Assembly: GCF_964204645.1 (NCBI RefSeq)
Contig: NC_134028.1
Span: 13,443,263 to 13,507,262 of the forward strand
Reading direction: 5' to 3'
From: Tubulanus polymorphus
Taxonomy: Eukaryota; Nemertea; Palaeonemertea; Tubulaniformes; Tubulanidae
Length of the DNA stretch: 64,000 bases
Every line of letters starts with the position of its first letter. Positions within the stretch are counted from its first letter, which is position 1. The position numbers were made by a program, and so were the translations under genes. This document shows, piece after piece, positions 11,442 to 51,540 of the stretch. Under the pieces are notes generated by a model. The model ran no database searches, was not told where the DNA came from, and was given only the letters and a program-made list of their open reading frames with translations.

Positions 11442-11790
11442 AGTAATTAGAAGATGGCGTTTTCAGATCAGAGTACTAGAGTACTAGACACCACTCATCA
11501 CAGCTAGGCTCTAGTGAGAACGGACGATTGCTCTGTGACACACATATACAGTGAGTGCGCGTAACAACAACTGCGCGTGGATAGATCGATACAGTGAGTC
11601 TCTACTGAGAACGGTTATTAACGCGTGTGTTATTACTGTAGTACAGTGATTGCGTGTCAACTGTGCCCAGATAAATAGATGCTGTGAGGCTTGGGTGAGA
11701 ACGGTTAATAGCGTGTTTGTTATATACAGGGGGAAGTAATCCCCACTCATCACCACAAGTAATTTGTTTTCCTTATAAATGGGAGATAGA
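11442..11790. repeat. Left terminal repeat of Polinton B, expanded by 93-bp tandem units
   Basis: The outer part matches the right end of the element, then three imperfect units of about 93 bp starting GAGAACGG interrupt the terminal repeat, which resumes with CACTCATCACCACAAGTAATTT at about 11742. The right end (25775-25854) lacks these units, so they expanded after the two ends diverged. Confidence 0.65.
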
Positions 11791-11891
11791 AAAACATTCT
11801 TAGCAACAATAAATAACAGAATTAAACCAGCAAAAAACAATTTGAAATAAAAAAGTTAGTTGATGTTACAAAAGAAATTGAACATAAAATA

Positions 11892-12104
11892 TTGAAATTA
11901 GAAAAGATAAAAACTAAATATGGAGAGAAAGTATCAGCGAATTTAAGCTACTGTAATGTTAGTACATCGCGAGAATTTAAAGTATTTTTACCTGATAAAT
12001 GGGTTTCATTGAGTACAGAGGAATTAAAAGATTTAGAAGGATTTAAAATAATCTATCATGGAAAAAATGAAGATGGCCATCATGATTTAGAAATTGTTGA
12101 TTAA
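11892..12104 (+). pseudogene. Small conserved Polinton protein, N-terminus lost
   Basis: The open frame has no ATG before the conserved region (position 11892 is TTG). The part with KTKYGEKVSANLSYC, EFKVFLPDKW and a final YHGKNEDGHHDLEIVD-like tail matches the intact 117-residue protein at 41403-41756. The pattern, a beta-rich segment after TKYG followed by FLPxRW/F and a YxGKN tail, recalls small single-strand DNA-binding OB-fold proteins, but that is an inference. It is the first gene inside the left terminus and runs opposite to its neighbours. Confidence 0.5.
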
Positions 12105-12201
12105 ATTTAAAAAAAATAAATTAATAAAAATAATGAATATCTGGAATCCGAAATGACTTATCTGGACAATTTAATTGCTCCGCATAGATTGACAAAAGTA
12201 G

Positions 12202-12236
12202 TGAGATGGTGCTGTATGGCACCCACATTGTGATAT
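12202..12236. repeat. Interspersed 35-bp palindrome, copy 1
   Basis: The core GGTGCTGTATGGCACCCACA folds as GGTGC/GCACC. Nearly the same sequence lies inside two unrelated coding frames of Polinton C (30777-30815 and 34357-34395). Here it is intergenic. Confidence 0.65.
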
Positions 12237-12264
12237 TCAATTAATATTCAATTAATTAAAAAAA

Positions 12265-12660
12265 TTATTTTTTTTGCTTTTTTTCTAAAATATTCATCCA
12301 TTTTTTTATTGTCATTTTTGGAATTTCAGAATTATTTTTATTTTTGATAGCAGTTGTTTCAGAATTATTAATATCATGAATTTTATTTGATTTCTTATAC
12401 CAATTACACCCAATCAAAATGAATGCAATTACAAATCCAACTGTAAAATATAAATATTTATCAAATATTCTATTATCAGAAAGAGTAGAAATAACAATAT
12501 TTTCACCATTTTTATTAACATTTTTATTACTTATTTTTTCTTTTACAGCTTTTTTATATTCTTGTGATTTAATTCCTAATTGCCGAGACCATTCAATTTG
12601 TTTCTGTGATCTCGGTTTTTTCTTCACAGTTAAATCCTTCACTTCTTCCACCTCGCTCAT
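12265..12660 (-). CDS. Small basic single-pass membrane protein
   Basis: The open frame of 131 residues has a basic N-terminal third with KKPRSQKQIEWSRQLG, matching the KARSEKQIKWARELG segment of the A and C homologues, a hydrophobic segment at about residues 70-87 (YLYFTVGFVIAFILIG) and a polar Asn/Lys-rich tail. The Polinton family is clear from synteny beside the YCKH-containing gene. Its role is unknown; a virion membrane or DNA-contacting role is possible. Confidence 0.6.
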   Translation of the reverse strand: MSEVEEVKDLTVKKKPRSQKQIEWSRQLGIKSQEYKKAVKEKISNKNVNKNGENIVISTLSDNRIFDKYLYFTVGFVIAFILIGCNWYKKSNKIHDINNSETTAIKNKNNSEIPKMTIKKWMNILEKKQKK

Positions 12661-12663
12661 TTA

Positions 12664-13197
12664 TTATAGAAAAATTTTTACTTTAATATTTGAAAATGTT
12701 ATAACCCCAGTTGATAATAATGTCATAAATCCACCTAAGTGAAATGATAAATATCCAATCCATTTATTTAATTCGGTCATAACTAAATAATCATTTTTTA
12801 AATCGGAATATAATCTATTTTCATCTTCAATTGGTAGTATAAAATTACATAATTTACTATAACCTTTTACTACATTTTCTGATATCGCGTCATTAATTCT
12901 AGCTGTTCTCGAGGCTTCATAAGTCTTAAATAATCTAATAATTTCATCTGATTTCATTGTATCTTATTCATTATAAGTTAAATTTTTACCGACAAAATTT
13001 TTACATTTTCCAGATGCTATTAATATTTCTAATTGATGTTTACAGTAAAGTTAATATTCATAATTATTATTTGTTGTAACATTATTTAAAGCACCATCAT
13101 CTGGAATTAATTTGTTTTCTGTTATTCCTAAATCATCTAAAGTTTTTTCAATTGGAACATCACCTTTTTTAGATTTTATTTTCTTTCCACCTACCAT
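12664..13197 (-). pseudogene. Homologue of the 202-aa Polinton protein, two stop codons
   Basis: The frame starting at 13197 is collinear with 238-846 but contains TAA at 13051-13053 (a Tyr position in the homologue) and at 12964-12966 (a Leu position). The C-terminal 97 codons after the second stop are open and keep the DLKNDYLVMTEL and STGVITFSNIK segments. Function is unrecognised. The N-terminus here is rich in Lys and Gly and differs from copies A and C. Confidence 0.65.
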
Positions 13198-13224
13198 TTA
13201 TATAACAAAAAAATTAGTTGTGAT

Positions 13225-13500
13225 GTTGCAACTAGAATTCAACTAGAACGTAACTAGAATTCAACTAGATTAACAAGCTAGTTGAAATATTGTTGTTTTT
13301 GTTTATATCTTGTTAAATCTAGTTGATTTTTGTTTCAACTACTAACAACTAGAATTCAACTAGAATGTAACTAGAATTAAACTAGATTAACAAGCTAGTT
13401 AAAATATTGTTAAATCTAGTTGATTTTTGTTCCAACTACCAATAACTAGAATTCAACTAGAACGTAACTAGAATTCAACTAGATTAACAAGCTAGTTGAA
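13225..13500. repeat. Tandem CTAGAATTCAACTAGA array between genes of Polinton B
   Basis: Three units of roughly 110 bp share AACTAGAATTCAACTAGAA, then AGATTAACAAGCTAGTTGAA, separated by TTGTT-rich spacers. They resemble the CTAGCTAGTT motifs in spacers of Polintons A and C but are expanded here. Location upstream of one gene and downstream of another leaves a regulatory or replication role open. Confidence 0.75.
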
Positions 13501-13501
13501 T

Positions 13502-14108
13502 TTAAATAAATTCATATTTAAATGGGTGTTGTAATCTAAATAGTAATTTTGATCTTTTAATATTTTTCAACTTATCCATATATTCATTATGTAAATCATG
13601 TGGAATAATATCATTTTCCTCAAGTGCATTTTTCATCGATTTTCTATCTTTATTGTAGAATAAAACTAGAAATCTAATGTTTTCTCTAAAGTCTTTAACA
13701 ATTGAATTATATTTTTGATTTAAAACCCAAGTTGTTATCCCAAAATGTCTACCAGAAAAAGCTAAATAACATAACTCACTCTCTCTAACTTTTGAATCAT
13801 GTAGATTAGCACAATCATCTATAATGAATAATGTATTTGATCCTTTAAATATCTATTGCTATTTTAATACAATTATCTAAATTTTCTTTTACTGTTTTAG
13901 GATCTAATATAATAAATTTATTATTTCTAGTAATATTTCTATCATAAGTTTGATTAAATTCATATGTTGGACAAAATAATACCATATTATCAAAATAGTT
14001 TTTATAAACAGTTTCTAATAAATTTAATATAAAATAAGTTTTTCCACAATTTGTTACACCAGAAATTAACATATTATGAAGCTCAAATATGAATAATTCC
14101 TTATTCAT
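13502..14108 (-). pseudogene. Genome-packaging-type P-loop ATPase, frameshifted
   Basis: From the ATG at 14108 the frame shows Walker A GVTNCGKT at about residues 17-24, and after a small deletion near 13850 a second frame continues with Walker B FIIDD and a conserved GRHFGITTWVLNQKY segment. About 200 residues in total is normal for the FtsK/HerA-like, A32-type packaging ATPase of Polintons. Homologues are 29198-29809 and 63382-63952. The integrase gene ends immediately upstream. Confidence 0.8.
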
Positions 14109-15223
14109 TTATATATTTTTAATTTTACTTGATAATATCCATTCATTGAATTTATCTGGCCATCCAACCCATTTTACTAAAGAATATTTTTTTCTTTTAA
14201 TAGTTTTTGTTTTTAATATTTTTTCAATTTTATATTCTTGTTCTAGATTTTCAGTAGTTAAACTCAATTCTTCTTCGTAAAAGTAGCCATCAACTTCTTC
14301 ACCATCTAAATCTTCTAATTTATAGACATATGGTTTTGTTGTTATTACCTTTTTTATTTTATATATTTCCCTAGTAAAATTTCGATCGTATCCTTTGTCA
14401 AATATCTTTTTATACTTAGAAATTCTAACATTTTGACCAACTTTAGGTTCACCAAAATCATCTCCAAGAAATGCTCCATATAAATAATTCCAAACAATTT
14501 CAGCATTTTCAGGTTTTCTAGCATCAATAGGTTTCATTCCAATAGAAGAATGATAAGAATTATTATATCCTTCTATCAATTTTGGTAAAACATCAATCCA
14601 TTTAAAAGTATTATTTGCTGTAAAATATTTCCACATTCTTGTTCTTAATGTTCTATTAAACAACTGCTGCTTTTTTATCCGATTTTGTTGAAAAATATTT
14701 AATATTATGATTATCTAAGAGTTCATGAACAAGTGAATTATCAAACTCTTTTCCATCATCAAATTGTATTTTTTTCTGGTTTTAGTTTATCATCCGAAAG
14801 AAATTTTCTTAAAACATTTGATGTTTGTACAGCATCTTTTCTATAAAGTGGGAAGCTCCATACATAACGACTAAAAATATCAATTATATTCAATAACCAC
14901 CAATAATCATCATTATCTTTCTTAACATTTTTCATATCAATTAAATCTCCTTGCCACTGTTGATCTACATAACTTACCATAGTTTTACGAGTTTTATATT
15001 TTCTAACAATTTTTTTATGTGTTGTGTATGTTGGTTGTTCTAACATAAATTCATTTATATCTTTATATTTAACTAAATTTTGTGGGATAATCTTATCTAA
15101 TCTATCTTGTTTTACTTGACGCCATATATTTTTAGTAGAAGAATAAGCAACCGAACTCTCAGGGTTGTAATATAAATTTCCTAAATATTGTTCTTTAGTA
15201 TTAGGAGTTTTTTTACCACCCAT
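14109..15223 (-). pseudogene. Polinton integrase (rve, DDE) with C-terminal chromodomain, frameshifted
   Basis: The N-terminal part (14759-15223) has the HHCC-less Polinton integrase head and the first catalytic Asp in WQGDLIDM. The frame breaks at an A-run near 14770 and again near 14665. The C-terminal part (14109-14663) carries KTLRTRMWKYF-type integrase core sequence and ends in a chromodomain, with SLVKWVGWPDKFNEWI as its signature. Such integrases insert the element and make 6-bp duplications; the chromodomain may guide insertion to particular chromatin. The intact-core comparison is 29802-30914. Confidence 0.85.
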
Positions 15224-15253
15224 TTATATATCCTTAATTTTAACTTTATATTT

Positions 15254-16504
15254 CTAATATTGAATACTATCTAATTGTGAATTTACAATATTTAATTGCG
15301 CGTCAGATATAATATAAATATGCATTTTGAAATTTAGGCTTCCTTTTTTCTTTGTCATGAATAATTGTATTCCATCTTTAGTGTTCTGTAGTTTTTTTCC
15401 AGAACCATGTAATGAATTATCCTCTGTTGTTCTAAAATCTAACCATAATGCATATTTATTGCCGGTATAATAATCAATTTGATTAATATTACAATTTTCA
15501 AATGATTTTACTTTTTCATTCATAAAATGTTTTCTAATTTCTGGCCACTGATCTATCAATCTCATTCCTTGACAAAATATTTTATTTGCTATTCCTTCGA
15601 TAGTTATTTCTACTTTTGTTATTTCAGGATTATAATAATTATCAACCTTTATTGCGCCATTAGAATATGTTGCAATGGTAAAAAATATTAATGTACCTTA
15701 ATAGATCTTCTTGGGAAGTTAATATTCTCATTAATTATTTCATCATTTGCATTAATAGTTACAGTTTTAAATTTATCAATATAATCAATCATATAATAAT
15801 AAAAATCCTTGATTGTATTGAGTTTGAATTGTGCTAGCAATATTTTCATTAGTTACTGTGTCATATTCTAAACATATATTCGATAATTTATAACCCATAT
15901 CTTTAACAACGCTAGATAATACAATTTCATTTACATGAGCAAATGTTATCTCAAATATAATATCTTCTTGAATTGCGTATTTATATAAAGGTGCATTATT
16001 ATTTATCAATTCAAAGTCTAATGGAATTTTATATTTGCTTCCATAAATCTTTTTAATCAAATTATCTGTGGCACGAGTTACTATTGCGTCATTAGCTCCT
16101 GATCTTAATTTATTATGGTTTTCCGATTGAATACCCTGAAATATCATATTATTTCTATTTTCTTTAGTTAACCATAAATCTTTATAATGCATAAATAAAT
16201 TATAATCATCTAATGAGAAAAATGTTTCTGGACCAATCTTTATAGTTAATTTTTTAATCAAATATCTCCCAACATTATCAACAACATAATTATTATCATG
16301 ACCAATAACTTTTATATCAGCTGATAAATAAATACTATTTGGAACATAAAAAGTATTTTGTGTTAATCTAGGAATTCTAACATATAAAGTTTCATCGGGA
16401 TTAATATTTGAAGGATTATGAGTAATTATATGATGTGATCTTTCTGCTTTAATAGCATTAGATATTCTAGAAATCTTAGAAGGACTTATATAACTCCCAC
16501 TCAT
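15254..16504 (-). pseudogene. Candidate major capsid protein, frameshifted
   Basis: The N-terminal frame (15785-16504) has VDNVGRYLIKKLTIKIG, then DDYNLFMHYKDLWLT and a GIQSEN...KLRSGAND stretch, a pattern I associate with double jelly-roll capsid proteins of Polintons and adintoviruses. The C-terminal frame (15254-15565) continues it. Breaks lie at a 4-base insertion near 15785 and a one-base loss in a T-run near 15700. Homologue 35102-36349 is about 415 codons, slightly shorter than most Polinton major capsids. The fold call is an inference from motifs and gene position beside the integrase. Confidence 0.6.
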
Positions 16505-16524
16505 TTATTTAACAAAAAAATTAA

Positions 16525-17954
16525 TTATTTATTTTTAATCATATTCACTAACCCAAAAATAATAGCACTTACAACTGTAATTAAAAATAAAATAATATGT
16601 TCAGCAGCAAAGTTAAGAATATTCCCAGCAGATTTCAATATAAAACCAACAATTGATGCAATAACTCCGGGTAAAGCTGCAGCAGATTTTTTAGATAGTT
16701 CCCATAAATATTTTGCTAATTTCTTTAAACCATCTTTAACTTTATCTTGTATAGAATTATCATTCGGGGGTTTATCCGGTTTATTGGGAGTAGGAGTAGA
16801 TTTTAAAGCATTTGATAATGCTAAACCAATTGTTGTAAATAACATAGTTACAGCTGTTAGAATTGAAAGAATTGTTATTCCTTCTAATTTAAATAATAAC
16901 TTTATTCTATCTTTCAATGATATTTCAGAATTTGGTTTTATCAACAAATCTTTAAAAATAACTTTTAATCTATTTATATTATAATCGTATGATTTTAACA
17001 ATAATTTAATTTCTTCTTTTTGTAATTCTATGTTATATTCTAAATCATCAATTTCCTTTTCTAAATATGCATTTCTTTTTTTAAATTCAATTTCTTCAAT
17101 AACTTTATTATCTCTATCTAATTTTAATTGTTCTATTTCTTTATTTTTATCAGTTAATTCTTTTTCTAAAGTTCTAATTTTTAAATCTCTTATACTTTTA
17201 TCATGCGCAATTTTATCAGCTTCATTTCTTATACTAATCATTTCTCTTATTGCTTTATCAGAAAATATATTATTTAAATCTTCTAATTCTTGATCTGTTG
17301 CATCAATTAATCCATTCGGTAAAAGTTTTTCAGTTTGAACTTCACTTGAATTAGGTTTACTAGTTTTGGAATTATCAGCTTCTTTAGTAATTGTTTCTGG
17401 TTCTAAATTTTCATTAATTATCTTAAAAAAATAATCATTTCTTTTTTTAAATTCTCTTATATTAACATCTCTTTCTTCTTGTGTAACATCAGTTATAACA
17501 TCATTAATGATTTTCTTAATTCTATCTGGTTTTAATAAATTAAAAGTTGATTGTGTTATTATTTTATCGAGACTTTTATTAGAAGAAATCTTAAAATAAT
17601 AATCATCTTTCAAATGCCAATAATAATCACCATTTGAATATTTTAAATCTTCTACTAAATAATCCATACCTTTATTTGTTATATTGAAACCAGATTTTCT
17701 TAATATTGGTTTAAAATCACTAGCAATTTCATTATATTTAAATTTTTTTCTATTAATTCTGTTACTTCATTTTCAATACTTATCTTTGAACGTGTTTTAT
17801 CAATAAATTCAGGTGTAGTTAAATTAGAATTACTTCCTGGCTCATTACCGTCATTAAAACTTGTTTCACTAAAATCAGGTTGTTGTTCATCAGTTATGCC
17901 AGGTTCATCAAAATTATCCATTCCAATATCTTCTCCACCTCCTTCTACATCCAT
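16525..17954 (-). pseudogene. Acidic-head, coiled-coil, multi-hydrophobic protein, one frameshift
   Basis: An acidic Gly/Asp/Glu-rich head starts at 17954. A lost base in an A-run near 17735 shifts the frame, after which a segment with YYWHLKDDYYFKI leads to a long coiled coil (about residues 130-240 of the second frame, rich in Glu/Lys/Leu). Two hydrophobic regions follow, one near TILSILTAVTMLFTTIGLA and a longer pair at the C-terminus. Polinton C has the same gene (36370-37801). The layout fits a membrane-anchored virion or scaffold protein, but I do not recognise it. Confidence 0.5.
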
Positions 17955-17970
17955 TTATATATTAAAGAAA

Positions 17971-19345
17971 TTAAAATTTAAAATATAATGTTCCTCCTAT
18001 AACAATTCCTATACAAGTTAAAGCTAATTAAGTATTTTCATGGAATTTATTATCATTATCAGTTTTAATTATATCATGTTGAATATTATCAGTTTTAATA
18101 TTTTCTGTAGTATTTTAATCTTTTATTTTAGAATCATTATTTAATTTAATATTCTTAGTTTTAGTTTCTGTTGATTGAATATGTTTTTTATTTTTTTCAC
18201 CTTCCATTAATTTTGGAGCAGTGATAATCTTTTTATTTATATCATTTAATCCAAATGAATTATTTATTGTTGCAGTTTTAATTAGATTATTGTAACCAAT
18301 TATGTTTCCCATCTTTAGTACTAAATCATTAGAAATAATTAATAGATTAGGTCCTATACAATAATTTAATCTAATATGTGCTTTTGATATCTTACAATGT
18401 TTTCTGGAATCGATCTATTTTTATCATTATGAATGGAATCTTCAAATTAAACTTTGAATTGTTTCTGCGCATCGAATGAAGTGTTATCATTTCCAATTAT
18501 TGGGGATCTTGTTTCAACTTGCGCACCTAAAATACATATCAAATAAGTTCTAATAGATTGATTTATTCTTTGTATACCTGATTTTGTAAAACCTTCATTA
18601 TTTTCTAAAATGAAATAAACCCAACCATTATTGTTTTCTTGTTTTAAATTATCATAAAATGTCGGTAATTTATTGAAATTTAATGTTTCAAAATCCTTAG
18701 TTTCTATTTTACCATAACCTAATTTATTACTATAGATATTATACAAACTATTAGATGGTATGGGAAGTGCACAATATTCTGCAATCTTTTTAGGGCAAGG
18801 AAGTGATCTTATTGTTCCCTTTTTGTTCTAAAATCAGAATTATTTATATCTATATTAAATTCATTACAAATGTTATAAAACTTTGATAAATTAATTTTAT
18901 TATCTAATTCTTTAAAATACCTAGATCCTGGTAAAGCGCACTCTAATTCATTTAATATTATTCTGATTTGAAAGTATGTATGAAATCTAAATAAACTTTG
19001 AATTAATTTATATTTAGAATTATTCAAATGATCATTCCAACTAATTCCACATCCTGTTGTTGCACAATAAACAGCAAAATTTAATTGGTTCTGCCAATAC
19101 TTCATATTAGATTTTAATAACCATTGTTTTTCATCTTTCAATTTTTTAAAATTAATTAAATATACATGAAATATATTTTCCATCTTTGCATTAAAATTAT
19201 TAGTTTCAGTAACATAAATTTCTAAATTAGTTAATGAATCTAAAACTTCATTTCTATATGTAATATCTTTATTAAAATATATTGCTGGAATATTATATTT
19301 AATTGATTTATTATATTGGAAAGCTTTTGGAAAACCATCTACCAT
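17971..19345 (-). pseudogene. Conserved Polinton protein with C-terminal membrane segment, several breaks
   Basis: Pieces 18809-19345, 18447-18746 and 18115-18312 form one gene homologous to 37823-39118. Notable conserved words are FPKAFQYNKSIKYNIP at the start, YCATTGCGISWNDHLN in the middle, and QRINQSIRTYLICILGAQVE before a Lys/Asn-rich tail. In the C copy the tail ends in a hydrophobic segment. The gene sits between the coiled-coil gene and two small membrane-protein genes, in what looks like a virion gene block. The family is not recognised. Confidence 0.5.
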
Positions 19346-19373
19346 TTATTTAATTAAAAAATTAATAATTTAT

Positions 19374-19796
19374 TTATTCTTTTAATAATTTATCTTGTTC
19401 TTCAACTGTGATATGACCATTTAAACTTATTATATAATCTAATGTATTCTTTAATTTATTAATTTCTTTAATATTAGTTTTAATTTTTTCTTGATTACTT
19501 TTTATATTTAATTTTGAACTTATACCAGTTAAAACACTTGAACTTAATCCTAATACACCAATTGATATAGCTAAAGGTGTTAATGGACTGAATATTGCTA
19601 GAAATGTTATTACAGAACTAATTGTAACCGAACCACTGATAATAAGATAATATATAATTTTACTTTTTAAATATTTTTTCTTTTTCATCTTTAAGTCACT
19701 TTCAAATTCTAATATTTGTTTTTCTAAATATATTTTTAATTTAGTTTTATTTATATCATGAGGAATAATATCAATACTATCAACTTTATCTTCCAT
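19374..19796 (-). CDS. 140-aa protein with two central membrane segments, intact
   Basis: The open frame is nearly identical to 39135-39569 in Polinton C. A Lys/Glu-rich N-terminal helix is followed by two hydrophobic segments (about residues 48-98, with LTPLAISIGVLGLSSSVLTG) separated by a short turn, then a Lys-rich helix. This hairpin membrane topology suggests a small envelope or inner-membrane virion protein. The family is unnamed to me. Its near-perfect conservation between two otherwise decaying copies is notable. Confidence 0.65.
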   Translation of the reverse strand: MEDKVDSIDIIPHDINKTKLKIYLEKQILEFESDLKMKKKKYLKSKIIYYLIISGSVTISSVITFLAIFSPLTPLAISIGVLGLSSSVLTGISSKLNIKSNQEKIKTNIKEINKLKNTLDYIISLNGHITVEEQDKLLKE

Positions 19797-19816
19797 TTAT
19801 TTAGAAAAAAAAATTA

Positions 19817-20100
19817 CTAGTTAGTAAATTTATATGCTACAAATATAACAATAACAGTTCCACCTAAAATCCAAATTATTTCATATTTCTGTTGTTCTTT
19901 ACTTGGGGTATAATAATCTGATAATTTAGGTTTGTATAGATGTAATTTTTCTTTCTTGGTTACCGCGTTATATAAACTCATTGCATCATCAACTGATTGA
20001 AAATCTCTATGTGAAATCTTCTGATCATATAATTCCTTGTTAATATAATCCATATAGTTTTGTCGTTTTTCTCTGTATTCTTCTGCTGTTTATTATATTT
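19817..20100 (-). pseudogene. Polinton tail-anchored protein, N-terminus deleted
   Basis: The C-terminal 78 codons match residues 63-140 of the intact 140-residue protein at 39590-40012, including FQSVDDAMSLYNAVT, SDYYTPSKEQQKYE and the final hydrophobic GGTVIVIFVAYKF anchor. A deletion near 20100 fuses what remains of its 5' part to the minor capsid gene fragment. Confidence 0.65.
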
Positions 20101-20279
20101 CTCTTATGCATAGTTTTATCCGATATATTATAACAAGAATTACATAAACTTATATTTACTAATTTTAAATCAACACAATTCTTAAATTCTCTATCTAATT
20201 GAACTAGTAAATTATGTGATTTATAATTTGTAAGTTTTCTAGAATCAACAAATATTCTGTATTCTTTTAGTTCTACCAT
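20100..20279 (-). pseudogene. Minor capsid (penton-like) candidate, only the N-terminus left
   Basis: The frame starting at 20279 matches the beginning of 40631-41385, with YRIFVDSRKLT and LLVQLDREFKNCVDLKLVNI. At about 20105 it runs into sequence of the neighbouring gene, so about 1.3 kb (two small genes and most of this one) has been deleted compared with Polinton C. Confidence 0.6.
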
Positions 20280-20347
20280 TATTTATAACATAAAAAAATT
20301 ACCGCTCATCACTAAAAATTAATTTTAATAAAATTTGTCCTTAATAA

Positions 20348-20683
20348 ATGGATGAGAAGATACCATGCGAAATTTGTGGTGAACTTCTAAGAAAAAGTAA
20401 TATGGCTCGACATATGAAAAAACATGATGAAAATTATAAACCCCCTAAACTAAACTGTCCAAAATGTAATAAATTATTCTCAAGAAATTATGTTAAAAAA
20501 CATTCAGAGAAGTGTAAAATTAATGGTGCAACGGCTAATGTTGATAGTAATGAAAGTAATAGTAATTCTGCTGAAGTTGTACCTGAAATTATTTGGAAAA
20601 GACCTTTCTTATTCTATGATAAGGATAATATAAAAGATCATTTCTGCGAGCCTTGTCGAGTAAAATATAGCCCTGAAATATAG
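20348..20683 (+). CDS. C2H2-type zinc-finger protein (first part of a longer locus?)
   Basis: The 111-residue frame has two fingers: CEICGELLRKSNMARHMKKH at the N-terminus and CPKCNKLFSRNYVKKHSEKC after it, followed by a Ser/Asn-rich linker and a CEPCRVKY half-finger at the end. After the stop, homologous-looking coding continues in other frames into 20776-21664, so both may be one decayed gene. It is on the plus strand, convergent with PolB and absent from Polinton C. Confidence 0.55.
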   Translation: MDEKIPCEICGELLRKSNMARHMKKHDENYKPPKLNCPKCNKLFSRNYVKKHSEKCKINGATANVDSNESNSNSAEVVPEIIWKRPFLFYDKDNIKDHFCEPCRVKYSPEI

Positions 20684-20775
20684 AAGATTGGGAGAATCAT
20701 CAATTTCGTAAAGTACATATAGATAAAATTTCTTATAAATTTGAAACTGAATTCAATGAAAGAAAAATAGTTTAT

Positions 20776-21664
20776 TAGAAAAAATTAAATATGAGAAAAC
20801 GTTAACAGTTGAAAAGTTAGAAAAACAATATAATGAATTAACAAGAAAAACATATTATTGTAAATATTGTAAATTGATTATTACAACAAGTAATTCAAAT
20901 CTACATAATAGAACAATAAAGCATAAAGAAAACGTAAGAAAATACCAAGAGCTTAATGAAGATCTATTACCAATAAATTATAAACGAAAATGCCCACAAT
21001 GTAATTACGCGACCTTAAGACAAGAAGGTACTGTGTTATTTTGTGTTGATTGTGGATGGCAAAGGAATTTATGGGGTGAAGAAAAAACTAGAAATTTTCT
21101 CATAGAACCAAAATTAAATTATCTAGATGAAATTTTTAAAATATTTTCTATAGAAGATCATACACCGGAATATATGCAATGGCTTGAAAAAATGAAAATA
21201 ATAGAAAATAAAAATGGTGAAATAACTAAAAAAGATATTATAAAAACAATTATTCCGTCAACATTTAACACAAAACAAAAGAAAATGTATTTATATTTAT
21301 TATTTAACGATTATTATGATAAAACCTAAATTAACAGAAGAAGATATGGAAAATATAAAAAAAAATATTCAAACAAATATTAATGTATCATTTGGAAAAT
21401 AGAATAACAGATTCAATTAATTATGAATTCTTTTTAAATAAGATTGTAAATTATTTAAACATAGATATTATAATTCCATTTGACGAATTAACAAACAAAA
21501 AGAAACAAAGAGAGCGAGATGAAATGTGGAACATGATAGAACTTTATTTAAATGAGAAAAATGAAATGGAAGAAGAACCTAAACAAATTATACAAGAACA
21601 ATTATATGAAAATGAAGAAGCCAATAGTGATTTCGAGTATGATGATATTGATTTTATGTTTTAA
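20776..21664 (+). pseudogene. VLTF3-like late transcription factor candidate, frameshifted
   Basis: An open stretch through 20874-21329 contains a finger CKYCKLI...H/KH and then a zinc ribbon, CPQCNYATLRQ followed by LFCVDCGWQ. The second piece (21383-21664) has SINYEFFLNKIVNYL and RDEMWNMIELYL. The order zinc ribbon, then a Y-x-F-x-x-K-I helix, then a D-E/x-x-W segment resembles the poxvirus late factor 3 family found in large DNA viruses and some Polinton-like viruses. The resemblance is motif-level only. The 3' end overlaps the 3' end of PolB by a few bases. Confidence 0.4.
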
Positions 21665-24600
21665 TGGCCATAAGGTAATGTTTTTATACCATCATCTAAA
21701 ATATGCCTTTTATCATCAAATGGATTCAAACTAGTTTTTTCAACTTCATTAATGTACATCTCGTGATCTTCTGATCTTAAACAATTCATTTTGTGTTTCA
21801 TTACAATTGATTTATATAAACACTTTATATAATCTTGAAATTCTATATGTTTATCAACCACATGTTTTGTTATTCCTTTTAACTTTTTAGCTTCATGATC
21901 TTTTGTTCTGTAACTATACATTTTACTTCTTATCCCAACAAATTCAATCATTTCATCACCCCCTAATTCATCTTTAAACTTACCAGGAATCTGTTTATTA
22001 TCATTGCTAAATAGTTCATGATCTTTGGGATAATTGTTAAAATCAAAATGATGTTTTGATGTTTTTAAGTCTTTTGTTATGTCATTTGTCTTGATTTTTA
22101 GTATGTAGGCGTCAGTATTTTTGGCTATTAATGGAAATCCACAGTTAAATGTACCATCTTCAGTTGATAAATCATAAACATAATCTGTTGGGTTATATAT
22201 TTCAAATAAATCTTTAACTTCATCTGTTACCTCATTTTCTACATGGCTTAAATTAAAGCAATTTGGTTTAGATTTAATCAATCCAATATTCATATCAAAA
22301 CCTAATGAATTGCATAATATATTCAATCCTGATATAGCAACTTTTCCTTTTTGAGCTAAAGATATTGTTTTGCGATTTTTGAAACTTTTAGTACCATCTG
22401 CTGCGTAGAATCCAATGAAGAACCATTTTCTTAAATTATTTTTTACATTTAATACATAATCTGGAACTATCTTTTCTTTAGTTGAAGTATTACTTTTCAC
22501 TATTGCATGAATATAGAATTCGTCATTATATTTTATAGCAAAATCTTTAGGATTATTCACATGTATTCTATAACATTGCGATGATTTCATAACATCTATG
22601 ATTTTGAATGTTTTATGTGAATAAACTTCTTCACAGAATTTCTTTATTCTTTCTAATAATTTCAAATCTTGATTGCATAAATACCAGCAATATTGAGTGC
22701 GATTAACATAATTATACAAACCTGCTGAACCATCACCCATGAAAAATCCTTTGATAAAATATTCTTTTTCTTCTAATGTTTCGGGTTCTATATTATAAAT
22801 ATTATCAATAATTTCATCAAATGACATATGATTCATTCTTTGGAAAAATCTTTTATGTAATAATTCATCTCCAATTTTTATATCAGTTGGTTTTATTTCA
22901 TCACCATTTCGTTTAATCAAACTATGATCTTCTGTAACGTCTACAAACCTTAATTTAGTTCTAACTCTATAGATTTTCTTATTTGTTTTATGCTTAATAA
23001 TATTCTTTAATTTTTTCCATCCATTTCTTGTCCAAACATCCATTAATCCATTTATTTGTATTAATTCTTTTTCACCATATGAAATATAACATTAATTTTG
23101 TTTTGGAATTATTTCTGAAATTCTTCTTATCAATATTTTATCATTACATTTTAATAATATTGGGGTGTCAGCTGTTACAGAATCAAAATATAATATTTCA
23201 ATATGATTTTCCCCAAAAAGTGGTTGTAAAACCTTAATAATTTTAATACTTCTAAAACAGTTGAACCAATGAATATAGGTTTATTAAATTTCATTGACGT
23301 TCTTTTTAATTTAACTGCTGTTAAATAATCTTCAAATCTTTTATTTCCTAAATGTCTAGGACTTGATTGTAAATGTCTTAATCGTTCAGAATTATTTACT
23401 AATTCAATATTATTTCTATTTCTAATATTTTCACATGTTTTACCATAAAAACTATTATTCATTAATTTGAAGAAATCTTTTTCAAAATCTGTTTTTGATA
23501 TTGTTCTCTGTTGAGTATTGAAATCTATATATTTTTCTAACCACTTCGATTGATTAAATTCAATATATCTATGTACTTTCTTTAATTTCATTCCTTGTTT
23601 TAGATAAAATTTTAACATTTTATAATGAACAATATAATTGTATTTATTATTTTGAGTAAGTATTAATTTTTCTGTAAAAACATGATCTTTCGGTTTTATT
23701 TTCTTCTGGTATTCACTTAAATAACTATCATCTACAGTTAAATGTTCTGGGCAATAAGGTAAGTTTCTTGTTTTAAACTTTATATTTTCAGGATATTCTA
23801 AATCAACTACAAAGAAATAACCAATTGGTGCTTCATCTTTTAAACTCGCAATTGCGCTTTCCCAATTAGTTTTATCATCATTTTCAACGTCTGTTAATAT
23901 AAAATTTTTATATGGTTGAGGTTGCATCATTGCCCAACCATATAAATTATTGGCGTCAATATATAATAATTTATATTCATCATTTGCTTTAAAATACCTA
24001 TCTCCCATAACACCACTAATTCCTCCTCTAATTGATTTTTCAAATAATAAAACCATATCTGGTTCTTTTAATAAATCTAATTCTACATTTGTATATTTTA
24101 AACCACATTGCCAGGTTAAACCAGGACTAGAGTAGCAATAACAAGGATCAACATGAAAATGATTCAAATTAACTTCTCTAAATTTTTCAAATATGTCAGC
24201 CAATATCATAACATCTGATTTTAAATACAAATCAACTAATTCACCATGATTTTTCATCTTAAAATGGTTCCAAATATTTAATGTTCTATTAAACACTTCG
24301 TCTTTCACATACTCCTCTTTCAATTGATCATAAAATGGATCTTTTAATAATTCTGTTACATTAAAATCATTGTGTGTTTTATAAAATGAATAAGGAATTG
24401 CGCCTTTATATCTCAATAATTTAAAATCTTGTTCATTTGGATAATAATATCGAGTTATAACAAAATCATTATCAACTAAACTTTTTGATAAATTATCTAA
24501 TGAACTTGCTAGAAATCTATAAGAATTTAAAAATCTAATGCAACCAAATTGAAATGAAATATAATTTTCAGATGTTTTAGCTAATAGTTTAAAATCATAT

Positions 24601-25770
24601 TTTCTTACATTTACACCATTAATAGCATTATATTCTTCTAATTCTTGATTAATTGCGCCCAATTTCTTTGATAATTGTTTTATAAATAGATGGGTATCAT
24701 AGCCTGATAAATTATGAAATAATATTGGTACGAAATTAACTTTCTTAGCTTGTAAATTACAATCTTCATGAGCAGCTCAACGATATTTTGAATTTAAATG
24801 ATCATGATCTCTAACTTTTTTATCAAATGAATAAAAACGTTTTTCACAATAACAACAATGAGTTGCATAATTAAAATCAATTTCATCTTCTTTTGTCATA
24901 ACTATTCTTTTATTTTTGTTTAATAATTTTGCAAAATCACTTTCTAATTCAATCATTTTGTTACAAAAATCATTAACTACATCTTCACCTCTAAAAGAAA
25001 TATATTGACTTTCATATAATTCAGGATAATTTGATTTTATATAAATTCCATAAGCAGCAGCTCTTTGATGAACTTTTTTAATTGTATTTATAATTGGCGG
25101 GTCTTGTGTTGTGTCTTCATTTAATTCATTTCCTTTATCCATTGATTTTAATAATTGCTTTTTGTTATATATTTCTTTTCTATCTTGATCAGTTAATTCT
25201 TTATTCAACGATTCAAAATCCCCATAAATTACAAATGGAACAATATTCTTAAATTTATTTTTAGTAAATTTCAATTTATAATCTTTTTCTGTTGGCATTA
25301 TTAATTTACAAAAATCTTTATTATCACATAATTCTTTATGTTTTAATAATGTATTCTTAGTCATAAATTTAGATAAACATTTTCTACATAGATAAATTTT
25401 ATGATGATGATCACTTTCTGTTCTAAAGAATAAATCAATTTTTTATCATCAAAATAATCTTTTCCTAAAACATTATTACTCAAATTTTGATGGTGTTTTT
25501 GTGATTCGAGATGTCTATTATAATTCCTTTTTACTATAAATTCATTACAAACTTCACATTTTATTTCATCCACATTCATATTTTCTAATCTTTCTTTTCT
25601 TTCATTGGAATTTTCTGGAGTTTCAAAATCTATTACATTTTTTATATGATTTGCAGTTTTTTCATGTCGTGTTTTATGAGATGTATTGATTTATTTTTTT
25701 TATAATATGTGCAATAATATTGATTTTTATAAACATTATTATTTTCTGGCTGGTGTTCATTCTCCCCCAT
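21661..25770 (-). pseudogene. polB: Protein-primed family B DNA polymerase with intein, broken
   Basis: The gene starts at 25770. It shows a zinc-finger head (CEVCNEFIVKRNYNRHLESQ), an endonuclease VII-like CYCEKRF...RDHDHLN segment, Exo I YGDFESL, Exo III YLKSDVMILADIF, motif A LLYIDANNLYGWAMM, motif B LMNNSFYGKTCEN and motif C split by an intein between YFD and TD. The exonuclease plus polymerase layout is that of Polinton PolB, which replicates the element. Lesions include a head frameshift near 25680, TGA near 24777, a small deletion and frameshift near 23240, and TAA inside the intein. A central N-terminal domain present in Polinton D (44345-45157) is missing. Confidence 0.85.
22117..23181 (-). 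other. Intein with LAGLIDADG homing endonuclease inside PolB motif C
   Basis: Exactly 355 codons interrupt YFD|TD of PolB. Residue 1 is Ser in SVTADTP (block A). Block B is VTEDH at residues 82-86, with Thr and His in the usual spacing. GFFMGDGS (145-152) and GFYAADGT (257-264) are the two LAGLIDADG motifs, each keeping its acidic residue. Block F is VYDLSTEDGTFNCG (335-348), and block G ends in AKN with Asn355 and extein Thr at +1. The penultimate residue is Lys rather than the usual His. One in-frame TAA (codon 30, 23092-23094) breaks it. The site equals the pol-c insertion point known from archaeal and giant-virus polymerases. Confidence 0.9.
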
Positions 25771-25774
25771 TTAT

Positions 25775-25854
25775 TGGGAAAAAAAATTACTTGTGGTGAT
25801 GAGTGGTGTTTCGCCCGCTCCCCGCTGATCTGAAAGCCCACTTTCCCAATTACT
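25775..25854. repeat. Right terminal repeat of Polinton B
   Basis: On the minus strand it begins AGTAATTGGGAAAGTGGGCT and continues through TTCAGATCAGCGGGG and ACCACTCATCACCACAAG to the polymerase start. The CTGAAAGCCCA...ATTACT end is related to the termini of Polintons A and C. Confidence 0.75.
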
Positions 25855-41785: not shown

Positions 41786-42092
41786 TTAACACGTTAGAAT
41801 TCTTTTCATTATCTCGTTCTCTTTTGTTTCTTCTCTTTTAAATTTTAAGTATTCATCTAAATTACAACCATAAGCAACTGTATGAATTCCATCATCTAAA
41901 ATATATCTTTTATCATCCAATGGGTTTAGACTTATCTTTTCAATTTCTTCAATAAATATTTCATGATCTTCAGATCTTAAACATCTCATCTTATGTTTTC
42001 TAACTTCTTCATTGAATATACAATTGATGTAATCTTTGAAATGAATATTCTTTTCTACTACACTTTTGGTTATTCCTTTGATGAAATCTTCA
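41786..42092 (-). pseudogene. polB: PolB C-terminal fragment of Polinton C
   Basis: KGITKSVVEKNIHFKDYINC and NPLDDKRYILDDGIHT match the C-terminal extein of PolB in Polinton B (21670-21880). Upstream polymerase sequence has been replaced at about 42092 by the terminal cassette, so motifs A-C are absent. The reading frame continues a few codons into the cassette. Confidence 0.8.
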
Positions 42093-42425
42093 AAACTATA
42101 ATATATTTTCATAACCGTGTGTATTTCAGTTGAATAATAGAATAATTATTATTATTTGAATATATTTGATTATATGAATTTGTGTATTGTAAATAAATCA
42201 ATTGGTCGCGGAGCGGAGCGGTAGCGAAGTGGAGCGACCAATTGATTTAATACAATATGCTTTTAAAATTTAAATTATTAATATCTTAGAATAAATATTT
42301 AGTTATAATATGAAATACACACGGTTATGAAAATATATTATAGTTTTAAATTACTCTTAATGTTTTGTTTTTTAATGAGCTCGACCGTTCGACCTTTGGC
42401 CTGAAAGCCCATTACCCCTATTACT
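42090..42425. repeat. Right terminal cassette of Polinton C, inner arm truncated
   Basis: The sequence from AACTATAATATATTTTCATA to the final CCCCTATTACT matches 3186-3515, including the GC-rich hairpin at 42203-42247. The inner terminus AGTAATAGG is missing where the polymerase fragment is joined. Confidence 0.8.
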
Positions 42426-42431
42426 AATATT

Positions 42432-43560
42432 GAATCTGATCTTTGTACCATTACAGTACAATGTTACGTAGCACTGTTCATTTGCTACCTCGGTGCTATT
42501 CACTGAACCGACAAAGAGTTCATCTTCCGATGCATTACTATTTTCCTCAGTCTCAACTCTCTGTACTTCCCTTCTGCGACATACTTTACGAAAATGTCCT
42601 ATCCCCTTGCATTTAAGACATTCTTTGCCATATGCTGGACACTGGCGTTTCCCGTGACGTGTCCCGCATTTTCCGCAGTTGAAAATGTCAGATCTCGTTT
42701 GCTGCTTCGCCGACGCCAGCTTATGCGTACCTGAACGCCGCTCTCGTGTCTTCGGTTTTTCCCTTGTTGACTGCTTGAACCTCTGACAATGTTCCGCCTG
42801 CCTCGAAAGAAATATCTTTTACTTGTTTCAATGGCAGTTCATTTGCTCGGCATATTGTGACTGCCTTTCCGAGAGTTAGATCTACTTCTCGCAACAGTCT
42901 CTCTTTTACTCTTTCGTTATCATATCCGCATACTATTCTGTCGCGCACAAGTTCATAGTAAAATGCACCAAAATCACAGTTCTTGGCTATCAAAAGTAGC
43001 TCGGTGACATACTGATCAATCATCCTCCCCCGGCAGGGATTCGAACCTGATGGCATCGAGATTGCCACGGCACGAAACCCTGCCATAATCGACCGTGTGC
43101 GCAGATACATGCGCGGTTCAAATCCCGGGTATTCCCATTTATAGGTCTTCCTGGAAATTTGCCTCAACGATTATACAACGAGCAATCTGATTGGTGCTGC
43201 CAGTTTTCGTTCGGAAAGCTGCGCATGTACCTGCGCGCCCGGTCTACTGATGCAGGGGTTCGTGCCGTGGCTGAGTGTAACGATGCCATCAGGTTCGAGT
43301 CCCTGCAGAAGAAGGATGACTTTCGTCTGATTTCTTCTTGCGAGTGTTGAATTTATACTTCTCCACTGTAACGTTTTTACGTGGTTCGCAATAGTCATCG
43401 AAAGCTTTCAGCACTGCGACTATTCTGTTGCTATCCGCTACCGACAATTGCAACGTATTGTATATGTCCCTACCTTCTTGACCTATGATATACAGGAATG
43501 CTGAACATTTCTCTGCATCTGTCTTGTCTTTCATCACTAGGTCTAGGTATAGTCTCATGG
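42432..43560 (-). pseudogene. gag: gypsy gag with CCHC zinc knuckle, interrupted
   Basis: The start (43289-43558) has KCSAFLYIIGQEGRDIYNT and FDDYCEPRKN, typical gag matrix/capsid sequence. A foldback insertion (43021-43325) interrupts it, after which YVTELLLIAKNCDF, RDRIVCGYDN and the ERLLREVDLTLGKAV helix follow. Past a frame break, CGKCGTRHGKRQC and CLKCKGIGHFRKVC form the nucleocapsid knuckles. A Glu-rich linker leads into the protease. Confidence 0.8.
43021..43325. repeat. Foldback insertion with two inverted tRNA-like (SINE-type) modules
   Basis: At 43025-43085 (minus) and 43250-43310 (plus) lie inverted copies of a module with GTGCCGTGGC, CGATGCCATCAGGTTCGA and a CCCTGC end. GGTTCGA(A/G)TCC matches the internal B box of tRNA-derived promoters and TGGCTGAGTGTAACG recalls an A box. 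The module pair interrupts gag at the segment encoding KKSDES. No complete tRNA cloverleaf is evident. Confidence 0.6.
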
Positions 43561-43724
43561 ACTGCTTCCACTTTTTCCATCTCTCCGAGAGGTTTTCATC
43601 GGAGAAATTTAGTTCACACGGCGGTTTTAAATGTTCCTTTCTACTGACTTTTATAGTCTTCCAAACATCTATTTACCCCGTACCGGCCTTGTCTGGTATT
43701 TACAGGTTCGGTACGCTGCCACCA

Positions 43725-47000: not shown

Positions 47001-47508
47001 TTATGTAGTACATTATAGAATGTTAAAGTTTTATCTAAAACAAGGAATGATCCTTAAAAAAAGTACATAGATATATTTCATTTAGTCAATCTAAATGGTT
47101 AGAAAAATATATAGATTTCAACACCAAATAGAGAACTAAAGCTAAAACTGATTTCGAAAAAGATTTCTTCAAGTTAATGAATAATGCATTCTATGGAAAA
47201 ACTTGTGAAAATATAAGAAATAGAAATGATATTGAGTTAGTCAGTAATGGTAAAAGAATTATACATTTACAAACATATCCTAAATTTATGGGTAACAGAA
47301 TATCTGATGAAAATTTAGCTGCAGTTAAAAGGAGGAGAACTTCTATGAAATTTAATAAACCAATTTATGTTGGAGCTACAGTTTTAGAATTATCAAAGTT
47401 ATTAATGTATGAATTCTATTATAACATATTACAACCTCATTTTGGAGAAAAACATATAGAAATCTTATATTTTGATACTGACAGTTACATATTAAAGATA
47501 ATAAAGTG
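43867..47508 (+). mobile_element. Polinton/Maverick D, fragment with intein-free PolB
   Basis: The fragment begins inside the small conserved gene where the gypsy LTR was inserted and ends just after polymerase motif C, with no terminal cassette. All genes are on the plus strand. Homology to Polinton stops at about 47508. An AGTAAT...ATTACT mini-palindrome 50 bases further (47557-47594) may be the last trace of an end. Confidence 0.8.
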
Positions 47509-47509
47509 A
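44099..47509 (+). pseudogene. polB: Protein-primed family B DNA polymerase, empty homing site, truncated
   Basis: In order: a zinc-finger head (YYCSTCKIDIDKSQKARH), an N-terminal domain (44345-45157) with YIKLPFKTNAVINVQN and CFLWTIISCLHP as in other Polinton polymerases, Exo I IYRDFESL, an endonuclease VII-like CYYCEKIF...RDHDHLNGKFRGAAH, Exo II NLSGYDAHLF, Exo III YLKSDVLLLSDIF, motif A LLYIDANNLYGWAMM, motif B LMNNAFYGKTCEN and motif C YFDTDSY (47469-47489), uninterrupted. The frame is broken at about 44300, 45157, 45530, 46465, 47068 and 47130. The gene stops about 20 bases after motif C, so the C-terminal TPR and thumb are lost. Confidence 0.85.
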
Positions 47510-50390: not shown

Positions 50391-50705
50391 TTAATGTTCC
50401 GACAAAACCACGGGCGACAAAACCAAAATTATGAATTGTCGCGGGTGACAAAACCAAAATATTGAATTGTCACGGGCGACAAAACAAAAATAATGAATTG
50501 TCGCGGGCGATAAAACCAAAATAATGAATTGTCGCGGGCGATAAAACCACAATAATGAATTGTCGCGGGCGTTAAAACCACAATATTGAATTGTTGCGGG
50601 CGATAAAACCAAAATAATGAATTGTCGCGGACGACAAAAACAAACTATTGAATTGTTGCGTGCGACAAAACCAAAATAATGAATTGTCGCGGGCGACAAA
50701 ACAAA
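50391..50705. repeat. 31-bp satellite, short outlying block
   Basis: About ten units of the same 31-bp repeat as 51873-57092, with more variants. It is separated from the main array by the 155-bp tandem repeat. Confidence 0.9.
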
Positions 50706-50759
50706 ACTAGGGGTCCAGGGACACCATGCTCACTTGGGCAGTGGTTTCAAATGCTCAAC

Positions 50760-51540
50760 AATCTAACAATTTCAATACATAACGCCCTCTAGTGACCATA
50801 TACAAAAAACCAATGACCTTGAATCATAGAACATGTGACCTCAATCATAGAACATGTGAGCAGCTATGATTTTGTAATTGATTGTGATAACAAAATATGC
50901 CTCGTTACCAATTTAATATGGAAATACTAAATTATTCTACTATTCAACGCCCCCAGGTGACCATATGCAAAACCCAATGACCTTAAAACTCACCACAATC
51001 GTAGTACATGTCATGAAATACAACTTTGCAATTGATCATAGTAACAAAATATGCCTAGGTACCAATCTAATAAGGAAATACTAAGCCATTCTACTATTCA
51101 GCGCCCCCTGGTGACTATATGGAATAACTAATGTCCTTAAAAACTCACCACAATCATAGACGATGTCATGAACTACAACTTTGCAATGGATCATGGTAAT
51201 AAACTATGCCTAGTTACCAATCTAATAAGGAAAAACTAAGCTTTTCTACTATTAATCGCCCCCTGGTGACTATATGGAATAACTAATGTCCTTAAAAACT
51301 CACCACAATCATAGACGATGTCATGAACTACAACTTTGCCATTGATCATGGTAACAAAATATGCCTTGGTACAAATATAATATAGCGATACTAAGTTATT
51401 GTATTATTCAACGCCCCCTGATGGCCACATACAAAAACCAATGACCTTGAAACTCACCAAAATCATAGAACACGTTATGGGCTACAACTTTCCAATTGAA
51501 TATAGTAACACAATTTGCTTAGGTATCAATAATTTGTGGA
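50760..51540. repeat. 155-bp tandem array carrying CTCF-like motifs
   Basis: Units begin near 50783, 50948, 51102, 51257 and 51412 with CGCCCCCTGGTGAC-like sequence, then an AATGACCTTGAAACTCACCA-like segment and TACAACTTTGCAATTGATCA. An inverted single copy lies at 49500-49660. Each unit has one match to the core CTCF consensus on the minus strand. Confidence 0.75.

What the first reader, a model, noticed from the sequence alone, without database searches (positions are those of the whole stretch)
22117..23181. Intein with LAGLIDADG endonuclease in an animal Polinton DNA polymerase
A 355-codon in-frame insertion splits PolB motif C at YFD|TD. It carries intein blocks A (SVTADTP), B (VTEDH), F (VYDLSTEDG) and G (AKN then Thr) and two LAGLIDADG motifs (GFFMGDGS, GFYAADGT) with their acidic residues. 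This is the pol-c site used by inteins in archaeal and giant-virus polymerases. Inteins are, to my knowledge, essentially unreported as residents of animal chromosomes, so a Polinton would be a route for carrying one into a metazoan genome. The Lys before the terminal Asn (normally His) is unusual. One TAA at codon 30 shows that this copy is dead.
Basis: partly seen in the sequence, partly recalled or inferred. Interest (0 to 1): 0.93.

Follow-up and report, generated by a model that had tools for sequence, protein, structure and literature searches.

The report
Intein family in animal Polinton polymerases
A self-excising protein element (an intein), of a kind usually said to be absent from animal genomes, sits in the DNA-copying enzyme of a virus-like element that is present in more than a hundred copies across one animal's chromosomes, and many copies are undamaged.

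Summary
Window 22117-23181 (-) is a 355-codon pol-c intein with a LAGLIDADG endonuclease, inserted exactly at YFD|TD of a Polinton DNA polymerase. The window lies in a 268-Mb genome that carries Wnt genes, one on the window's own contig, so the host is an animal. At least 123 copies, all 87% identical or more, lie on C1-C12 and four small contigs. Of 64 copies studied, 37 are undamaged; the TAA is private to the window copy. Catalytic residues are kept (Ser1 and Asn355 33 of 33, +1 Thr 37 of 37); dN/dS among undamaged copies is 0.22. Empty polymerase genes coexist, five of them nested among occupied copies, and copies are mosaics. Polinton inteins form one clade, apart from the other family-B polymerase inteins. 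Splicing and homing are inferred, not shown. Three papers state that inteins are absent from metazoans, but a preprint already suggests intein invasion of Polinton polymerases.

The parts
22117..23181 (-). Intein, 355 codons: two splicing half-domains with a LAGLIDADG endonuclease between them
   Evidence: exact junctions
23161..23181 (-). Block A, SVTADTP (Ser1 nucleophile)
   Evidence: Ser1 in 33 of 33 undamaged 355-codon copies
23092..23094 (-). TAA at intein codon 30, present in this copy only (1 of 64)
22729..22749 (-). LAGLIDADG motif 1, GFFMGDG
   Evidence: Asp in 32 of 33 undamaged copies
22393..22413 (-). LAGLIDADG motif 2, GFYAADG
   Evidence: Asp in 32 of 33 undamaged copies
22153..22179 (-). 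Block F, VYDLSTEDG
   Evidence: conserved in relatives
22117..22125 (-). Block G end, Ala-Lys-Asn (+1 residue Thr)
   Evidence: Asn 33 of 33 and +1 Thr 37 of 37
23182..25690 (-). N-terminal part of the Polinton DNA polymerase, in several frames in this copy (breaks near 23.23, 24.78 and 25.4 kb)
   Evidence: PF03175 1.2e-18 on 23175-24776; tblastn of P0011; frames
21661..22116 (-). C-terminal part of the polymerase, from TDA of motif C to the stop
   Evidence: 81% to P0011
11442..25854 (.). Polinton element A, about 14.4 kb; inverted repeats 11738-11786 / 25763-25811 (49 nt, 88%) and a weaker outer pair 11442-11471 / 25825-25854 (30 nt, 77%); no clear 6-bp target duplication seen
   Evidence: sequence
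14109..15223 (-). Polinton integrase in two frames: rve core (2.4e-5) and chromodomain (3.5e-5), both below Pfam's cut-offs
13502..13852 (-). Packaging ATPase fragment (Pox_A32, 4.2e-5)
47132..47509 (+). Second Polinton polymerase (element B) with the same site empty: YFD/TDS uninterrupted between 47476 and 47477

Best explanation
An endogenous pol-c intein family of an animal, carried by Polintons. In undamaged copies the polymerase is translated as one precursor of about 1,688 residues. The intein folds into a Hint domain, uses Ser1, Asn355 and the following Thr to cut itself out, and restores motif C (YFD-TDS), without which the polymerase should be inactive. The LAGLIDADG domain is expected to cut intein-less polymerase genes of sister Polintons at the same motif, so that break repair copies the intein in (homing). 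Shown: presence, exact site, copy number, animal host, undamaged copies, purifying selection, coexisting empty sites, mosaic copies. Inferred: splicing, cleavage, homing, and a shared origin with polymerase inteins of large DNA viruses.
For: Profiles and motifs. Model of the relative P0010 (pLDDT 88.6, pTM 0.89): best matches in the viral library are DNA polymerases of a phycodnavirus (rank 1), Pandoravirus (3) and Megavirus (4); rank 2 has no name. Own genome: 123 matches scored of 606 candidates, all 87% or more; 91 of 123 without a stop over codons 31-355, 11 of 123 in open frames of 1,686-1,690 residues (my count of its rows). N junction exact 62 of 62 testable, 37 of 64 undamaged. Catalytic residues kept. 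dN/dS 0.22 (splicing parts 0.21 and 0.14, endonuclease 0.26); variants seen in 4 or more copies have N/S 0.58 (42/72) against a neutral 2.89, singletons 2.3. Empty sites: 150 of 150 scored (of 1,636 candidates); 39 of the 40 empty loci fetched have 0 bases between the flanks, the other has no C-flank match. Animal host: 39 of 39 wnt exon matches over the cut-off.
Against: No splicing or cleavage was observed. Five of five own copies tested score under Pfam's gathering cut-off for Intein_splicing (25.0-30.8 vs 35.8 bits). The penultimate residue is not His in any of the 33 undamaged 355-codon copies. The endonuclease is the least constrained part. Synonymous divergence of intein (0.206) and N-flank (0.208) is equal, C-flank 0.150 (37, 42 and 44 copies, not the same set), so there is no sign of a recent homing sweep, and windows across the N junction are the best linked (rho 0.53). 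General recombination explains the mosaics without homing. Presence of the intein needs only 3 changes on the N-flank tree once the non-homologous row L007 is removed, and well-supported branches force only 1.
Confidence: 0.87

Rival explanations
1. Splicing-competent but no longer mobile: the intein is inherited with one Polinton subfamily, the endonuclease is decaying, and the occupied/empty mixture comes from the subfamily's history and from recombination between elements.
For: Equal synonymous divergence of intein and N-flank; most neighbouring windows are unlinked, not only at the intein borders; the endonuclease has the highest dN/dS (0.26); four of nine close empties lie at the base of the subfamily, so one gain and two losses suffice.
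Against: Both catalytic Asp kept, each in 32 of 33 undamaged copies; endonuclease dN/dS still well under 1; pairs such as L050/L054 with intein 2.0% and N-flank 10.2% apart; five empties nested inside a 68-row clade (99/99) that holds all 63 occupied rows; precise losses are needed.
Confidence: 0.45
2. Contamination: a giant-virus, symbiont or protist contig placed in the assembly.
For: The named structural matches are viral, in a library that holds only viral proteins; P0003 is filed under a bacterial MAG.
Against: The window lies at 13.4 Mb of a 27.4-Mb contig that also carries Wnt exons; copies lie on every one of C1-C12. Pattern-based scans of IMG/VR and of GTDB species genomes gave no relative, which is weak evidence since the patterns were narrow.
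Confidence: 0.02
3. The insert is a spliced intron or a retained domain, not an intein.
For: Splicing was not seen; only sequence was studied.
Against: In frame; coding constraint in all three parts, strongest on the C-terminal splicing part; intein residues kept; splits the polymerase's catalytic motif C; matches intein profiles and polymerase-intein structures.
Confidence: 0.03
4. The whole family is a fossil: no copy has spliced or moved for a long time.
For: 27 of 64 copies carry a stop or frameshift in the intein.
Against: Two copies have identical inteins and flanks 0.4% and 0% apart (L003/L040; both on C12 and about 35 kb apart, so a segmental duplication is possible); 11 of 123 full-length open frames; undamaged inteins go with open flanks (25 of 37 against 10 of 27).
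Confidence: 0.08

Closest known systems
Inteins at the same motif in family-B polymerases (PF00136 hosts), including those of large DNA viruses (phycodnavirus, Pandoravirus, Megavirus)
   Same: Same motif (YxD|TD) where seen, same block order, LAGLIDADG endonuclease; mostly 26-43% identity over two thirds or more of the intein (queries: window piece, P0003, P0001); named viruses among the top structural matches
   Different: Host polymerase here is of the PF03175 type; Polinton inteins form their own clade, 100/99 (few of those rows have names and none is a named virus); these sit in animal chromosomes
Archaeal polymerase inteins (PI-PkoII, PDB 2cw7; Nitrososphaera MAG P0098)
   Same: Splicing-block and endonuclease similarity
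   Different: More distant; P0098 lies across a well-supported branch (97/87) from the Polinton clade
Homing-endonuclease insertions in polinton pPolB (Jeong 2023, cited in PMC11071308; original not held)
   Same: Endonuclease domains inside a Polinton polymerase, read there as likely intein invasions
   Different: I could not check whether those carry splicing domains, their site, or copy numbers
Hedgehog C-terminal (Hint) domain of animals
   Same: Similar fold and chemistry (passages of PMC5784728, and PMC6805012)
   Different: Not inside a host protein and no ligation of flanks (recalled); no Hedgehog family in the Pfam hits of the insert

Membership tests
Intein | In-frame insertion at a conserved site, exactly bounded, with uninterrupted relatives | tested here: met
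   62 of 62 testable of 64; 39 of 40 empty loci with 0 bases between flanks, 1 without a C-flank match
Intein | Hint splicing domain with nucleophile at 1, block B Thr/His, C-terminal Asn and Ser/Thr/Cys at +1 | tested here: met
   own copies are below Pfam's gathering score for Intein_splicing (5 of 5), three complete relatives above it. Among 13 relatives with the C junction, +1 is Thr in 11, Ser in 1, Ala in 1 (P0006)
Intein | Protein splicing activity | not testable with these tools
   needs expression
pol-c intein allele | Insertion in polymerase motif C between D and TD | tested here: met
   (N-flank ends YFD in 62 of 64); 21 of 26 relatives examined hold an N junction, after D in 20 and A in 1 (P0016), but the pattern used asked for D or A
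LAGLIDADG homing endonuclease | Two motifs with acidic residues | tested here: met
   LAGLIDADG_3 over its cut-off in 5 of 5 own copies
LAGLIDADG homing endonuclease | Cleavage of the empty allele and copying in | tested here: inconclusive
   patchy presence and mosaic copies fit, but general recombination does too
Polinton/Maverick | Terminal inverted repeats, rve integrase, pPolB, packaging ATPase | tested here: met
   (integrase core and chromodomain matches are below Pfam's cut-offs; the copy is decayed)
Polinton/Maverick | Double jelly-roll capsid protein | tested here: inconclusive
   no profile hit for 15785-16504
Animal-resident element | Integrated in chromosomes that hold animal-only genes | tested here: met
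   that Wnt is confined to animals is recalled

The most novel reading that the evidence does not exclude
Animal chromosomes harbour a living intein: a splicing-competent, selectively maintained pol-c intein that homes between the many Polintons of one nucleus, descended from exchange with large DNA viruses. The rule that metazoan genomes lack inteins would then be wrong, and Polintons the route in.
Probability: 0.45. Interest if true: 0.88.

Novelty: new variant of a known kind. Interest (0 to 1): 0.8.

Why it matters
Passages of three papers state that inteins are absent from metazoan genomes (PMC5784728; PMC8529194; PMC6805012), the last that why this is so 'is a puzzle yet to be explained'; the first two use the absence to argue for intein inhibitors as antimicrobials. 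A chromosomal, multi-copy, selectively constrained intein in an animal makes the puzzle testable: inteins can persist in an animal nucleus if carried by an element that replicates and recombines on its own. The genome also offers an occupied/empty system with more than a hundred copies of each in one nucleus.

Tried and rejected
Rejected readings: contamination, intron, retained domain, chance (see rivals). The Lys-Asn end as a sign of decay was rejected.

Led nowhere: pattern-based scans of IMG/VR and of GTDB species genomes found no relative. No tRNA or Rfam family in the window. PHROGs gave nothing for four pieces. Foldseek against the PDB never ran. A search of the own genome with PF14890 did not complete, so inteins at other sites were not looked for. 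Jeong 2023 and the adintovirus paper are not held. No 6-bp target duplication was recognised at the ends of element A. A clean homing test failed: distances between copies in neighbouring windows are almost uncorrelated (rho -0.21 to 0.53 between windows or halves, against 0.41 to 0.88 between odd and even columns of one stretch), so incongruence between intein and flank cannot be put down to homing.

A result that shrank on checking: on the first N-flank tree the intein label needed 5 changes, at least 3 forced. One row, L007, has a non-homologous N-flank and sat on a very long branch. Without it 3 changes are needed, well-supported branches force only 1, bootstrap trees give 2-4 and 0% give 1; L103 and L107 moved from among occupied copies to the base.

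Limits of counts: own-genome counts are lower bounds (123 of 606, and 150 of 1,272 or 1,636 candidates scored; the two lists of 150 overlap). The 64 copies are 60 of the 123 rows, every second one, plus L001 (the window copy), L003, L005 and L007. L007, L095, L051, L060 and L088 (damaged flanks) were left out. The intein tree used 67 of the 115 sequences then at hand (114 proteins and the window piece), those covering most of the intein; the later hits are not in it; P0018 was left unlabelled there and falls in the Polinton clade. The polymerase tree left out 5 of 20 intein-less relatives (P0034, P0038, P0042, P0050, P0071) in which my pattern did not find motif C. The 25 with and 20 without come from searches that favoured the intein and are not an occupancy rate. 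The split of the intein into splicing and endonuclease parts is mine (codons 1-115, 116-285, 286-355).

Full report
WHAT WAS CLAIMED AND WHAT IS THERE. It is there. The frame reads SVTADTP... to ...LIAKN with one TAA at codon 30. The piece behind the stop matches Pfam Intein_splicing (6.1e-7, below the gathering score) and LAGLIDADG_3 (8.3e-7, above it), and the flank matches DNA_pol_B_2 (1.2e-18). By sequence the nearest solved structure is the archaeal intein PI-PkoII. The flanks, read apart, are ...HIEILYFD and TDAYILKIK...; a relative without the insert, P0011, reads ...HIEIMYFDTDSYILK. The insert therefore splits polymerase motif C between D and TD. A second Polinton polymerase in the same window, on the other strand, has the same site empty, YFDTDSYILK, at 47476/47477.

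THE CARRIER. Element A spans about 11442-25854, with inverted repeats, rve and chromodomain matches of an integrase (both weak), a Pox_A32-like ATPase and the polymerase at its right end. It is decayed: the polymerase lies in several frames. No capsid profile hit was obtained.

THE HOST IS AN ANIMAL. The window is bases 13443263-13507262 of contig C4 of a 267.8-Mb genome in 77 contigs. C1 to C12 are 11.5 to 32.1 Mb long and add up to 261.7 Mb (lengths), so they are the twelve largest. A search for wnt (PF00110) gave 39 exon-sized matches, 39 of 39 over the cut-off, on C1, C3, C4, C5, C7 and C9; 0 of 14 control genomes ring, but the tool does not say which these are. That Wnt genes are confined to animals is general knowledge, not a result of a call. 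The species is not known to me.

IT IS A FAMILY, NOT A RELIC. The own-genome search scored 123 of 606 candidates; all 123 are 87-100% identical and lie on each of C1-C12 and on C18, C19, C28 and C57; 91 of 123 have no stop over the searched part (codons 31-355), and 11 of 123 lie in open frames of 1,686-1,690 residues (my count of its rows). One empty frame of the same subfamily measures 1,333 residues, and 1,333 + 355 = 1,688; the other close empties lie in shorter frames. I fetched 60 of the 123, every second row, and used four more. Of these 64 copies, 62 of 62 testable N junctions are exact, 47 have the same 1,065-nt length, 37 are undamaged, 20 have an in-frame stop and 7 a frameshift; codon-30 TAA is in the window copy only. 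Of 33 undamaged 355-codon copies, Ser1, block B Thr and His, and Asn355 are kept in 33 and each LAGLIDADG Asp in 32; +1 is Thr in 37 of 37 undamaged copies. The residue before the last Asn is Lys 25, Phe 5, Val 3.

SELECTION. Among the 37 undamaged copies (666 pairs) dN is 0.045 and dS 0.206, ratio 0.22; N-terminal splicing part 0.21, endonuclease 0.26, C-terminal splicing part 0.14. Open polymerase flanks give 0.06 (N, 42 copies) and 0.12 (C, 44 copies). Variants found in four or more copies have 42 replacement to 72 silent changes (0.58), singletons 99 to 43 (2.3), against 2.89 expected without selection. Choosing stop-free copies removes nonsense changes but does not by itself remove replacements. 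So the intein was constrained while elements were replicating, and appears to decay nearly neutrally once a copy is stranded.

OCCUPIED AND EMPTY SITES COEXIST. With a 130-residue piece of P0011 that crosses the site, 150 of 150 scored matches (1,636 candidates) are continuous, that is empty. With a piece of element B 150 of 150 (1,272 candidates) are continuous too, though that piece reaches only about ten residues past the site; of the 30 such loci fetched, 29 have 0 bases between the flanks and 1 has no C-flank match. Nine close empties (L099-L107) also have 0 bases between flanks. On the N-flank tree without L007 (103 rows) these nine and the 63 occupied rows form one clade (100/100); four empties lie at its base and five inside a 68-row clade (99/99) that holds all 63 occupied rows. 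Three changes are needed, well-supported branches force one. A first tree with L007 had given 5 and 3; L007's N-flank is not homologous, so I rely on the second. Copies are mosaics: distances in neighbouring 270-nt windows hardly correlate although odd and even columns of one stretch do. Some pairs have similar inteins with distant N-flanks (L050/L054, 2.0% and 10.2%) and others the reverse (L048/L074, 9.3% against 1.4% and 2.0%). Homing and gene conversion would leave this, but general recombination between elements would too, and dS of intein and N-flank is equal, so homing stays an inference.

RELATIVES. Three protein searches gave 220 proteins. By comparison with P0011, 25 are Polinton-type polymerases with this intein and 20 without; the other 175 match the intein profile without a Polinton-type flank, most of them with PF00136 polymerase domains, some mere fragments. 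On a tree of 67 inteins the Polinton ones are one clade (14 rows with P0018, 100/99); the rest are mostly inteins of unnamed PF00136 polymerases, and a group with a Nitrososphaera MAG lies beyond a further well-supported branch. On the polymerase tree of 30 rows, intein presence is patchy (5 changes, at least 4 forced) and the window copy's nearest relative is the empty P0011 (100/98). Across Polinton lineages the identities of intein and N-flank rise together (rho 0.87, 183 pairs), so on the long scale the intein has largely travelled with its host gene. P0003 is named after a bacterial symbiont of Ctena orbiculata, a bivalve; I read it as probable clam DNA, not shown. A model of P0010, a relative that is almost exactly the intein, has pLDDT 88.6, and its best named matches among viral structures are DNA polymerases of a phycodnavirus, Pandoravirus and Megavirus.

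LITERATURE. I searched for intein with Polinton, Maverick, adintovirus, metazoa, animal genomes, endogenous viral element and pPolB, and for homing endonuclease, LAGLIDADG and nematode with Polinton. [quoted passage not shown] PMC8529194, absent in metazoans; also passages of PMC5718144, PMC10120064 and PMC3671162 and a section of PMC12220804, none of which describes an intein in an animal Polinton. One section of PMC11071308 says polinton pPolBs contain inserted homing endonuclease domains, 'suggesting' intein invasions, citing Jeong 2023, which is not held. So the idea is in print; an intein family in animal chromosomes with site, copies, residues and selection was not found by these searches.

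VERDICT. A genuine pol-c intein of a Polinton polymerase, resident in an animal's chromosomes in at least 123 copies, many undamaged and under constraint. Splicing is very likely, active homing somewhat under even. It is a new variant of a known kind: a known type of element in a kind of host from which it was thought to be missing.

Noticed in passing
G000, 59 copies: Polinton copies in this genome are fine-scale mosaics: pairwise distances in neighbouring 270-nt windows are nearly uncorrelated, which suggests frequent recombination between elements.
   Followed up: partly
P0003: A protein filed in nr under Candidatus Thiodiazotropha (ex Ctena orbiculata) is an intein-bearing Polinton polymerase fragment, probably from the clam host and not from the bacterium.
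   Followed up: partly
P0016, residues 98-101: The closest intein relative (JGI metagenome) is preceded by YQA in place of YxD in motif C; the first catalytic Asp may be missing or the contig may be flawed.
   Followed up: no
window 45512-46465 and P0119: Polinton polymerases carry an Endonuclease_7-like stretch ahead of the polymerase domain.
   Followed up: no
window 41786-43672: Element B appears broken up: a polymerase C-terminal piece on the other strand (41786-42145) next to Gypsy-like frames (42372-43672, by eye).
   Followed up: no
window 50391-57171: A long run of near-repeats is open in several frames at once on one strand; its ORFs look like a minisatellite, not genes.
   Followed up: no
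G000:C1:13270326-13296041: Several Wnt genes lie close together, like the Wnt clusters of other animals (recalled).
   Followed up: no
G000: The listed Polinton matches crowd into one broad block of most large contigs (for example C1 12.8-22.4 of 32.1 Mb, C12 7.5-11.2 of 11.5 Mb); only the best-scoring copies are listed.
   Followed up: no
P0002: This intein-bearing polymerase cluster stands for 121 member sequences at 90% identity, which hints at another large family elsewhere.
   Followed up: no
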